A DNA stretch of 64,000 nt from Prescottella equi (lineage in GTDB: Bacteria > Actinomycetota > Actinomycetes > Mycobacteriales > Mycobacteriaceae), in contig NZ_LWTX01000001.1 in assembly GCF_002094305.1 (NCBI RefSeq), forward strand, positions 124,001 to 188,000, in the 5' to 3' direction. The notes beneath the pieces were generated by a model. It was not told the DNA's origin. It was given only the letters and a program-made list of their open reading frames with translations, and did not search any database. The translations under genes were made by a program, and so were the position numbers. Of this stretch, positions 31,794 through 33,971 are shown piece after piece (positions within the stretch are counted from its first letter, which is position 1; every line of letters starts with the position of its first letter).

Positions 31794-32099
31794 TCAACGC
31801 GCGTCGAACGTGTCGAACAGTTCCGACGTGATGCGATTGCGCTCCTCGGTTGCAGCCGCGGCGGCGAGGTGCGCGGTGTGCGCAATGGTCCGCGCGAGGA
31901 CCGCCGCGTCGAGGTCCTGCAGGGAATCGCTGAGCCACAACCCGGTCGGGCTGCCGTTGCCGTCGACCTCCACTCGCACGCGTCCGTCTTCGCTCGCGGC
32001 TTCCGCCCGAACGGCCTGGAGTGCGGACAGCGCGCCGTCGAGAAGGTCCAGCTGAGCGCTCGCCCGTTCGACGACCGCATCCATCTCGCGCCCGCTCAT
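31794..32099 (-). CDS. YbaB/EbfC-like protein of an ESX-substrate operon
   Basis: A 101-residue protein: a helix of about 40 residues, a short beta part (RVRVEVDGNGSPTGLWLSDSLQDL) and a final helix (ARTIAHTAHLAAAAATEERNRI). This is the YbaB/EbfC nucleoid-protein fold, also found in ESX-associated EspL. It overlaps the previous gene by 4 bp (ATGA) and closes a four-gene operon with an EspC-like protein and an NlpC/P60 hydrolase. A chaperone or regulatory role for the substrates is inferred. Confidence 0.7.
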   Translation of the reverse strand: MSGREMDAVVERASAQLDLLDGALSALQAVRAEAASEDGRVRVEVDGNGSPTGLWLSDSLQDLDAAVLARTIAHTAHLAAAAATEERNRITSELFDTFDAR

Positions 32100-32449
32100 G
32101 CCGGTCGCATCCAACTCGCCGGTGCGGCCTGGTTCTCGTCCTCGGCGCGCTGACTCGCCGCGACCTGGTCGCGGGTGGGCAGCCCGAGCCGATCGAGCAC
32201 GTCGGCGGGCACGCCGTCGCGGGTCAATTGTTCGCGTCGCCGGGCCCCGGCCTCCCGGCCCGCCTCGCGGCACAGCCGCAGGATCTCGCCGGCCAGACGT
32301 TCGCCGCCGTAGCGCAGTTCGCCCCTGTCGATGCGGATGTCGAGCGGAAGCCCCGTCTCGGTGGCCCGGACCGCAACGGTACGCGCGCGGTTGACAGCGG
32401 TCGCCGAGGACGCCGGCGACGCCGGTGGGGGCGGAAACGGTTCGGTCAT
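32096..32449 (-). CDS. YbaB-like hypothetical protein of an ESX-substrate operon
   Basis: A 117-residue protein with a Pro-rich N terminus and a segment VAVRATETGLPLDIRIDRGELRYGGERLAGEILRLCREAGREAGARRREQL. Its beta-hairpin plus long helix resembles the YbaB/EbfC core. No known name was recognised. It starts 26 bp after the NlpC/P60 gene and overlaps the next YbaB-like gene by 4 bp. It may work as a pair with that second YbaB-like protein. Confidence 0.65.
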   Translation of the reverse strand: MTEPFPPPPASPASSATAVNRARTVAVRATETGLPLDIRIDRGELRYGGERLAGEILRLCREAGREAGARRREQLTRDGVPADVLDRLGLPTRDQVAASQRAEDENQAAPASWMRPA

Positions 32450-32475
32450 GTCACTCCGATCGTGGGACGGGATGC

Positions 32476-33630
32476 TCATTCGGTGGGCCGGTAGAAGCCG
32501 TGAAAGCCCATGCCGCTGTTGCTGGTTCGGATCGCGCTGACCGACACCGGATCGCCGGCCTCGACCATCTGGCCGTTGCCGATCACCATCGCGACGTGGC
32601 CGTCCCACACCGCGAGGTCGCCGGGCATGACGTTTTCCTGGGCGACCGGAACGCCGACGCTCTGTTCCTGGGCCAGCCGCGGCAATTCCACTCCGGCCTC
32701 GCGGTAAGCCCATTGGGTGAGGCCGCTGCAGTCCAGACCCTGTCCGGGCGTCGTGCCGCCCCATTGGTACGGCACACCCTGCTGGGTGAGGGCATTGCGC
32801 ACCGCGTCGGCGGCCTCCTCGTTGGGGGCCACGGCGGTGGTGCCGTCGGGGAGCACGATCTCGACACCGCTCCCGCCGAAGCGGGGATCGTACGAAGTCG
32901 AGCCGCCGGCACTGCCGCTCTCGGTGGATGCCACGGCCGAACCGGAACCGTACGAGCCGGAGCCGTAGGCGACGGGTGCCACGTCGCCGGCCGACGAGCC
33001 GAAGGATCCGACGGGCCCCGAGGAGGGACCCGCGAACGCCGACAGCACCCGCCCGGCCACATCGGCCTGCGGTGCCACGGGTGCCGCGGGAAGGGTCGCG
33101 GACGCGGCGACCGTGCGGGCGTCGTTCGGCACCGGGTCGGGGGCGGTGAGGTCCACGATCTTCGCGGTGTGCGCGGCCAACTCTCCGCGCACTCGCTCGA
33201 CGACGGTCAGCGCACGACCGAGGTGTTCTGTCGCGGCACCGATCAACATCATCTGCCCGGCCGGTGTCGCCAGCGCGGGAAGCGCCGAGGACGCGAGTGA
33301 GAGGAAGGACTGCAGGATCGCCGCGAGCTCGGCGTTGCCTGCCCGGACGCTCTCGGACGCAGCCTCGACGACGGTCGCGATCTCCCGGCCGCGATCCGAC
33401 AGCTGCACGGATGCGGACTGTGTGGCCTCCGCTTTCGTGACCGCCGCGTCGGCGGCGACACCGGTCCAGGTGCCCCCGAGTTCGCTGATCCCGGTCCGCC
33501 CCACCGCATGGGCGGCGTCGATCGCTTCCGAGGCCGCCCGCAGCGATGCGGCGGGGGAGCCGGCCGGAAGGGCACCGGAACCGAACGCGGCGAGAAGGTC
33601 GACGACAGGGCGCGCGAGGACGTCGATCAT
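32476..33630 (-). CDS. NlpC/P60 peptidoglycan hydrolase with N-terminal ESX-type (WxG) domain
   Basis: A 384-residue protein without a classical signal peptide. Residues 1-165 are helical with a WxG turn (GGTWTGVAADAA, Trp55-Thr-Gly57), as in WXG100-type secretion partners. Residues about 195-255 are a Gly/Ser-rich linker. Residues 268-384 are an NlpC/P60 domain with Cys301 (GLDCSGLTQWAYR), His345 (WDGHVAMVIG) and Glu357 (GQMVEAG). The His-Glu spacing of 12 equals that of the RipA triad, so the active site looks complete. It likely cuts peptidoglycan cross-peptides after export by a type VII system. Its ATG overlaps the EspC-like gene by 4 bp. Confidence 0.85.
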   Translation of the reverse strand: MIDVLARPVVDLLAAFGSGALPAGSPAASLRAASEAIDAAHAVGRTGISELGGTWTGVAADAAVTKAEATQSASVQLSDRGREIATVVEAASESVRAGNAELAAILQSFLSLASSALPALATPAGQMMLIGAATEHLGRALTVVERVRGELAAHTAKIVDLTAPDPVPNDARTVAASATLPAAPVAPQADVAGRVLSAFAGPSSGPVGSFGSSAGDVAPVAYGSGSYGSGSAVASTESGSAGGSTSYDPRFGGSGVEIVLPDGTTAVAPNEEAADAVRNALTQQGVPYQWGGTTPGQGLDCSGLTQWAYREAGVELPRLAQEQSVGVPVAQENVMPGDLAVWDGHVAMVIGNGQMVEAGDPVSVSAIRTSNSGMGFHGFYRPTE

Positions 33631-33971
33631 GAGAGCCCGGCGTCCGTCGCGACGAGGGCGCCTGCGCCCGTGTCGATGAGGGCGCCTGCGCCCGCGGCAT
33701 CGGTCGCGTCGTACGCCGCGGCGGTGCTCGCGGCCGCTGCACTCATGGCCGACCAGGCCGACGACAGTCGCCGCACCTGGGCAACGTGAGCATCCTGAGC
33801 GGCCGTGAACGCGGCCACGAAGTCGCCCCCGACGACTCCGAAGACCGGTCCGAGCAGTGCCGGACCCGCCGCGCCCGCGGCTGCGCCCGCGGCCTCGGTC
33901 TGTGCGGCCAGAGCAGCGGCCGTCGCGCCGAACGTCGCGATACCTGCCGTCCGTGCCGAGAACTCACCCAT
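33627..33971 (-). CDS. EspC-like ESX secretion-associated protein with YxxxD motif
   Basis: A 114-residue Ala/Gly-rich helical protein. Residues 48-92 follow the EspC-family (PF10824-type) pattern FxxAxxxxHxxxxxxLxxxWxxM...AAxxYxxxD, with Tyr87-Asp-Ala-Thr-Asp91 forming the YxxxD type VII secretion signal. Two short direct repeats (GAGALIDT / GAGALVAT) close the chain. It is first in the operon and overlaps the WxG/NlpC gene by 4 bp. Paired YxxxD and WxG partners encoded side by side are the usual layout of ESX heterodimeric substrates. Confidence 0.75.
   Translation of the reverse strand: MGEFSARTAGIATFGATAAALAAQTEAAGAAAGAAGPALLGPVFGVVGGDFVAAFTAAQDAHVAQVRRLSSAWSAMSAAAASTAAAYDATDAAGAGALIDTGAGALVATDAGLS

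What the first reader, a model, noticed from the sequence alone, without database searches (positions are those of the whole stretch)
31794..33971. Compact ESX-type substrate operon carrying a peptidoglycan hydrolase
Four coupled genes encode an EspC-like protein with YxxxD (Tyr87-Asp91), an NlpC/P60 enzyme with an N-terminal WxG (Trp55-Gly57) domain and a RipA-like Cys301-His345-Glu357 triad but no signal peptide, and two YbaB-like proteins. The YxxxD/WxG pair is the usual layout of ESX heterodimers. No secretion machinery is nearby, so the operon may feed a distant ESX-4-type system with a wall-cutting payload and its own chaperone-like pair.
Basis: partly seen in the sequence, partly recalled or inferred. 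Interest (0 to 1): 0.72.

Follow-up and report, generated by a model that had tools for sequence, protein, structure and literature searches.

The report
Wall-cutting secretion operon with SatS chaperone
A conserved set of genes in soil and animal-associated actinobacteria pairs a wall-cutting enzyme, apparently built for a special secretion machine, with SatS, a helper protein known so far only from a different export route that seems to be missing here, so SatS may have an older and wider job than thought.

Summary
The four genes are real, at the stated coordinates, with the residues named. SatS is the mycobacterial export chaperone known from the SecA2 pathway. NlpC is followed by satS on the same strand in 61 of 70 named loci (Nocardiaceae-type and Pseudonocardiaceae-type) and in 43 of 51 carriers from a separately drawn, partly overlapping sample of 248 genomes, including 32 of 32 in the window's own family. 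In Mycobacterium-type genomes the slot upstream of satS holds this operon, sapM or neither. No SecA2 was found in the window's genome or in 22 of 32 named carrier genomes; T7SS EccC was found in 24 of 24 named Mycobacteriales-type carriers. Best reading: an EspC-like/WxG-like pair carries an intact-looking peptidoglycan endopeptidase out through ESX-4, the only locus with a complete EccC in this genome, with YbaB-fold proteins and SatS as cytosolic chaperones. Domain build and linkage are shown; secretion route, heterodimer and SatS client are inferred. The main rival is passive synteny, because the metabolic neighbours upp and add also stay linked.

The parts
33627..33971 (-). EspC-like small protein (114 aa), YxxxD at 87-91
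   Evidence: PF10824 30.1 bits over cut-off 23.5; 15 of 16 sequences match PF10824 at E<=0.1; Y..[DE] in 15 of 16
32476..33630 (-). WxG-containing helical N-domain (about 1-165), low-confidence linker (166-252), NlpC/P60 domain (about 256-384) with Cys301-His345-Glu357
   Evidence: PF00877 70.1 bits; triad residues 16/16; AlphaFold model pLDDT 71; best fold matches are NlpC/P60 domains, RipA, RipB, RipD among them
32096..32479 (-). YbaB-like protein 1 (127 aa)
   Evidence: own Pfam score below cut-off; 9 of 18 aligned sequences hit PF02575 at E<=0.1, best 5.5e-8, the window's not among them; profile match to the fourth gene 96.6%; model pLDDT 83, YbaB-family entries among the top Foldseek hits, none at E<=0.001
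31794..32099 (-). YbaB-family protein 2 (101 aa)
   Evidence: PF02575 33.5 bits over cut-off 25.5
30517..31746 (-). SatS homologue (409 aa), probable fifth gene, 47 bp after the fourth
   Evidence: NF050072 508 bits over full length, below the equivalog cut-off of 700; profile of ten homologues hits solved SatS 6dnm at 5e-78; linkage
34078..34701 (+). upp (uracil phosphoribosyltransferase, named from general knowledge; ATG read), divergent neighbour that marks the slot
   Evidence: ORF; conserved neighbour
29279..30502 (+). add (adenosine deaminase, named from general knowledge), convergent neighbour beyond satS; longest ORF given, true start probably some 130 bp inside
   Evidence: ORF; conserved neighbour, where matches begin mostly near residue 45-49

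Best explanation
This is a five-gene operon for a self-directed cell-wall enzyme exported by type VII secretion. The EspC-like protein and the WxG-like N-domain of the NlpC protein probably form a helical heterodimer whose YxxxD tail is read by EccC of ESX-4 (inferred). A flexible linker carries the NlpC/P60 domain out, where it cuts peptidoglycan stem peptides like RipA/RipB (fold and triad shown, cut inferred), most likely to remodel wall for growth or for the secretion apparatus itself, as EssH does for the S. aureus T7SSb. The two YbaB-like proteins (by analogy to EspL) and SatS keep the pair soluble in the cytosol before export (inferred). SatS would then work here without SecA2, which was not found in the assembly (shown). 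In one branch of Mycobacterium the slot upstream of satS is held by sapM instead (shown; that this is the later state is inferred).
For: Coupled ATGA junctions. NlpC followed by satS on the same strand in 61 of 70 named loci and in 43 of 51 carriers of a 248-genome sample, 32 of 32 in the own family, 11 of 19 outside it. No SecA2 over the cut-off in 15 of 80 genomes, the window's included; all 15 have a SatS-family hit. None in 22 of 32 named carriers. EccC over the cut-off in 24 of 24 named Mycobacteriales-type carriers, 78 of 80 sampled genomes and the SecA2-less Pseudonocardiaceae-type carrier L093. Triad 16/16, YxxxD/E 15/16. Precedents: SatS protects a client encoded just upstream and does not need its signal sequence to bind it (PMC6333443, passages); EspL as a YbaB-type chaperone (PMC6319747, passages); CpnT, a fusion protein, needs ESX-4 (PMC8593097, passages); EssH (PMC13059805, abstract and outline).
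Confidence: 0.46

Rival explanations
1. Passive synteny: the operon and satS do unrelated jobs and stay together only because this chromosomal block (upp, operon, satS, add) rearranges slowly.
For: add is found beyond satS in 40 of 44 Pseudonocardiaceae-type loci, nearly as often as satS itself (42 of 44), and upp beside the operon in the Nocardiaceae-type loci; SatS occurs in many genomes without an operon-type NlpC.
Against: upp is within the fetched flank in only 4 of the 44 Pseudonocardiaceae-type loci while NlpC and satS stay together; NlpC ends 17-152 bp from satS in the Gordonia- and Corynebacterium-type carriers, without YbaB genes between; the slot filler in other mycobacteria, sapM, encodes a proven SatS client in M. 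tuberculosis (PMC6333443).
Confidence: 0.28
2. Sec-type export: SatS hands the signal-less NlpC protein to SecA1/SecYEG; the T7SS resemblance is historical.
For: SatS is so far a Sec-pathway (SecA2) chaperone (PMC6333443); one SecA remains in the genome.
Against: No signal peptide by hydropathy; YxxxD/E kept in 15 of 16 partners; EccC over the cut-off in 24 of 24 named Mycobacteriales-type carriers.
Confidence: 0.13
3. Antibacterial T7SS effector (LXG-like toxin) aimed at competitors, with a YbaB-like protein as immunity factor.
For: Modular helical-domain plus enzyme layout, as in T7SS toxins (general knowledge).
Against: The enzyme domain is the most, not the least, conserved part; all 14 genomes of the genus have a match; the YbaB genes can be missing while NlpC is kept.
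Confidence: 0.06
4. The YbaB-like proteins are nucleoid-type regulators of the operon, not chaperones.
For: PF02575 is a DNA-binding family by name; EspL was examined for effects on transcription for this reason, and its loss lowered whiB6 expression (PMC6319747).
Against: Two divergent copies coupled inside a substrate-type operon; EspL precedent for substrate stabilisation.
Confidence: 0.2

Closest known systems
SatS of Mycobacterium tuberculosis (Rv3311) and the sapM-satS operon
   Same: Full-length homologue placed just downstream of a gene for an exported (here: presumed exported) protein
   Different: Neighbour is an EspC/WxG-NlpC operon, not sapM; no SecA2 found in this assembly; score below the mycobacterial equivalog cut-off
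EspA/EspC, EspE/EspF and PE/PPE substrate pairs of ESX systems
   Same: Small YxxxD protein encoded just before a larger WxG-containing helical protein
   Different: The large partner carries an NlpC/P60 enzyme domain; route untested
RipA / RipB / RipC (NlpC/P60 endopeptidases)
   Same: Catalytic domain fold and Cys-His-Glu residues
   Different: No Sec-type signal seen; T7SS-like N-domain instead
CpnT with EsxE/EsxF
   Same: N-domain needed for secretion fused to an enzyme, ESX-4-dependent export, partner small proteins beside it
   Different: Enzyme is a wall hydrolase and not a toxin; partner is EspC-type
EssH of S. aureus T7SSb
   Same: A wall hydrolase tied to a type VII system
   Different: CHAP domain; as I recall it uses a Sec signal; different N-domain
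EspL (YbaB-type ESX-1 chaperone)
   Same: YbaB-family protein tied to ESX substrates
   Different: Two copies here; no direct sequence comparison with EspL was made

Membership tests
EspC family (PF10824) | Score over Pfam gathering cut-off | tested here: met
   30.1 against 23.5 bits
EspC family (PF10824) | C-terminal YxxxD/E secretion motif | tested here: met
   Y87-D91; 15 of 16 sequences
EspC family (PF10824) | T7SS-dependent secretion | not testable with these tools
   no experiment
WXG100 family | Score over PF06013 / TIGR03930 cut-offs and about 100 aa length | tested here: not met
   18.9 of 27.3 and 21.4 of 44.85 bits, 384 aa; 6 of 16 sequences hit PF06013 at E<=0.1. WxG-like domain, not a family member
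PPE-type helical fold | Fold of PPE41 | tested here: inconclusive
NlpC/P60 (C40) peptidases | Domain score over cut-off | tested here: met
   70.1 against 23 bits
NlpC/P60 (C40) peptidases | Catalytic Cys-His plus third residue | tested here: met
   C301, H345, E357 in 16 of 16
NlpC/P60 (C40) peptidases | Endopeptidase activity | not testable with these tools
   no assay
YbaB/EbfC family | Fourth gene over PF02575 cut-off | tested here: met
   33.5 against 25.5 bits
YbaB/EbfC family | Third gene over PF02575 cut-off | tested here: not met
   12.4 bits; relatives and model fold support kinship only
SatS (NF050072) | Score over equivalog cut-off 700 bits | tested here: not met
   508 bits over 1-409; over the cut-off in 32 of 248 genomes, all of one genus
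SatS (NF050072) | Homology over the solved C-terminal chaperone domain | tested here: met
   profile hit to 6dnm, E 5e-78
SatS (NF050072) | A SecA2 in the genome to work with | tested here: not met
   one SecA match only, 492.7 bits against cut-off 725, in a 36-contig assembly rated 100% complete

The most novel reading that the evidence does not exclude
SatS is ancestrally a type VII (ESX-4) export chaperone for a peptidoglycan endopeptidase; its role with SecA2 and SapM in tuberculosis-type mycobacteria is a later re-use, made when sapM took over the slot of the T7SS operon.
Probability: 0.3. Interest if true: 0.85.

Novelty: new variant of a known kind. Interest (0 to 1): 0.62.

Why it matters
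It offers a candidate physiological substrate for ESX-4, for which few substrates are known. It also shows SatS homologues in genomes where no SecA2 was found, so the accepted description of SatS as a SecA2 chaperone is unlikely to be the whole story. Both points are testable in a laboratory Rhodococcus with a few gene deletions.

Tried and rejected
Considered and rejected or left open: (a) a signal peptide on the NlpC protein: hydropathy and the coupled start speak against it. (b) SatS residue G134, whose change separates two SatS roles in the eLife paper, as a marker of SecA2 partnership: it does not track SecA2 (Gly in the Mycobacterium-type and in SecA2-less Rhodococcus L043, L049, L056; Asn in Prescottella and in L127, whose genome has SecA2; Ala or Ser in Gordonia- and Corynebacterium-type). 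(c) Fold matches of the N-domain are ambiguous. (d) EspG-type chaperone genes were not searched for. (e) Promoters between the fourth gene and satS were not tested. (f) EccB and MycP of the own ESX-4 locus were not scanned. (g) No tree was built, so the order of slot changes rests on spread alone.

Rows dropped before counts: 85 of 248 genomes matched at 1e-30; the 51 at 193.5 bits or more were counted, the other 34 (125.5 bits or less) were dropped. satS places were listed for part of the genomes only (capped list); G014's was not listed and is counted among the eight without linkage. Of 70 loci, L105 and L106 carry other NlpC proteins and count as without satS. Genome samples overlap (G232 and the genome of L046, G138 and that of L087, share coordinates), so their counts are not added. 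Searches took 80 of the 248 genomes, chosen by me: all 50 of the own family, 24 Pseudonocardiaceae-type (18 with, 6 without the NlpC) and 6 others. One search took 32 of the 70 loci; the 24 Mycobacteriales-type ones.

Full report
Observation. The four genes of the finding exist as written. They are joined by three ATGA overlaps, a sign of translational coupling. The EspC-like and NlpC assignments pass Pfam's cut-offs; the fourth gene passes for YbaB; the WXG100 score of the NlpC protein and the YbaB score of the third gene do not. Relatives settle the weak cases partly: 6 of 16 NlpC sequences hit WXG100 at E<=0.1, and 9 of 18 sequences aligned with the third gene hit YbaB, the window's own not among them. 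The third gene's profile matches that of the fourth at 96.6%; its model has three strands and a long helix, and its best PDB matches include YbaB entries, though none at E<=0.001.

A fifth gene. The next ORF on the same strand, 47 bp on, scores 508 bits to NCBI's 'protein export chaperone SatS' over its whole length, below the curated cut-off of 700. A profile of ten such homologues finds the solved SatS C-terminal domain 6dnm at 5e-78. It is therefore a SatS homologue, not a certified equivalog. In the eLife 2019 paper (PMC6333443; passages seen) SatS is a cytosolic chaperone of the SecA2 route, in an operon with its client gene sapM. The authors write that SecA2-independent SatS substrates cannot be ruled out, and that homologues exist in other actinomycetes.

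Conservation. A scan of species genomes gave 70 loci. Of these, 24 are titled Rhodococcus, Prescottella, Nocardia, Hoyosella or Millisia and form one group: 19 of 24 show satS downstream on the same strand, and 15 of 24 show all five genes in order by tblastn. Of the five without visible satS, four (L044, L048, L054, L055) have unrelated genes directly after nlpC and L102 ends soon after. SatS-family hits are present in all 24 genomes. Of 44 Pseudonocardiaceae-type loci, 42 have satS downstream; five were inspected by ORF (L065, L071, L073, L087, L093), each with two small ORFs after NlpC, nine of these ten aligned with the third or fourth gene, and L087 without satS. L105 and L106 carry other NlpC proteins. 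A separately drawn sample of 248 genomes gave 51 with an operon-type NlpC; in 43 satS lies downstream on the same strand, 17 to 12,182 bp away: 32 of 32 in the window's own family and 11 of 19 outside. All 14 genomes of the own genus have a match.

The slot in mycobacteria. 32 genomes of one genus are taken as Mycobacterium because they alone pass the SatS equivalog cut-off. Fourteen have the NlpC upstream of satS; six of these were inspected directly, and all six have an EspC-like ORF before NlpC. The other 18 were all inspected: nine hold a SapM homologue, five a divergent pair of secreted-type proteins, four neither (two of these, L148 and L150, with an ORF of 190-198 aa on the other strand). 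SapM and NlpC were never seen together in the 24 slots searched for both. Because the NlpC version reaches from Pseudonocardiaceae- to Corynebacterium-type genomes, it is likely the older state (inference; no tree was built). Genus names of G-handle genomes are inferred.

SecA2 and ESX. The SecA2 model passed its cut-off in 65 of 80 genomes. The window's genome gave one SecA only, at 492.7 bits against a cut-off of 725, and the 15 genomes without SecA2 all have a SatS-family hit. Seven of these 15 carry the operon-type NlpC beside satS (the own genome, five Nocardia-type, one Rhodococcus). Among 32 named carriers 22 lack SecA2: 21 of the 24 Mycobacteriales-type ones and Streptoalloteichus (L093). 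EccC passes its cut-off in 78 of 80, in 24 of 24 named carriers, one copy in 21 of them, and in L093's genome. The two exceptions of the 80 are G027, which is no carrier, and the carrier G138, whose EccC pieces stay under the cut-off, one of them at a contig end. The own genome has one EccC over the cut-off with EccE, EccD, a Rv3446c-type protein and two WXG100 proteins beside it, about 111 kb from the operon. The R. equi genome paper describes one ESX-4-type cluster (PMC2947987, passages). So SatS persists where no SecA2 is found, next to a T7SS-like substrate operon, in cells that own a T7SS.

Mechanism. Shown: coupling, domain build, invariant triad residues, motif conservation, linkage, no SecA2 found, EccC present. 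Inferred: heterodimer, ESX-4 export, peptidoglycan cut, chaperone roles. The AlphaFold model has long helices up to residue 162, a low-confidence stretch 166-252 and an NlpC domain closest to solved NlpC/P60 domains, RipA and RipB among them. The N-domain's match to PPE41 is suggestive only. Conservation of the enzyme and drift of the N-domain speak for an own-wall enzyme rather than a toxin. EssH gives a precedent for a T7SS-dedicated wall hydrolase (PMC13059805, abstract and outline), and CpnT for an enzyme fusion that needs ESX-4 (PMC8593097, passages).

Limits. add stays linked almost as often as satS, and upp in the Nocardiaceae-type loci, so passive synteny remains a serious rival. SatS is wider than the operon. 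The YbaB-like pair is not universal. No interaction or secretion was tested.

Literature. I found no paper that ties SatS to a T7SS operon or to Rhodococcus: searches (listings), with the SatS passages read in PMC6333443, PMC13122829, PMC13095755 and PMC10653824. PMC5366915 (passages) states that SecA2 is conserved in the mycobacteria it studied; its one passage with Rhodococcus is on gene transfer. PMC6403190, which holds the words SecA2 and Rhodococcus, was seen in the listing only. Subscription journals and preprints were not covered.

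Noticed in passing
L044 9157-10743; L055 8954-10405; also L048 from 9221, L054 from 9644: Unrelated genes directly follow the 3' end of nlpC in four of 24 Mycobacteriales-type loci. In L044 and L055 the next ORF is a large serine recombinase (Resolvase plus Recombinase domains), in L048 a TIR-domain gene with phage-like ORFs beyond. nlpC may be a recurrent integration site.
   Followed up: partly
L107 (own genome C17) 9043-10386 and 10413-10712, minus strand: Second EspC-like/WxG-type pair; the larger protein is 36-39% identical to the window's NlpC protein over its N-terminal part, but no Pfam domain was found at E<=0.01.
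   Followed up: partly
L108 (own genome C1, ESX-4 region) 17708-18019 and 18016-19653: A third pair by position, overlapping ORFs after a gene that looks like glmM (recalled): a 103-aa protein with a YDGRD motif and a 545-aa protein with a sub-threshold WXG100 match.
   Followed up: partly
L137, L138, L140, L143, L147 (Mycobacterium-type genomes): Upstream of satS these five carry two tandem, divergently oriented secreted-type proteins that share a WIM...DP stretch instead of the NlpC operon or sapM.
   Followed up: no
L148, L150 (Mycobacterium-type genomes): Between upp and satS an ORF of 190-198 aa on the strand opposite to satS, with a hydrophobic N-terminus; family not tested.
   Followed up: no
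G010:C1:3393855-3394370 (L031): In one genome of the own genus two extra, oppositely oriented copies of the NlpC protein's N-terminal stretch (61-66% identity) lie about 18 kb from the operon.
   Followed up: no
L099 (JOAA01000002.1): Record titled Rhodococcus rhodnii, but its NlpC and satS match values resemble the Kibdelosporangium loci L098 and L100, so the record may be mislabelled.
   Followed up: no
order sample: SatS-family proteins occur in 234 of 248 genomes and in the C. glutamicum control, in some families only weakly (E about 1e-4 to 1e-8).
   Followed up: partly
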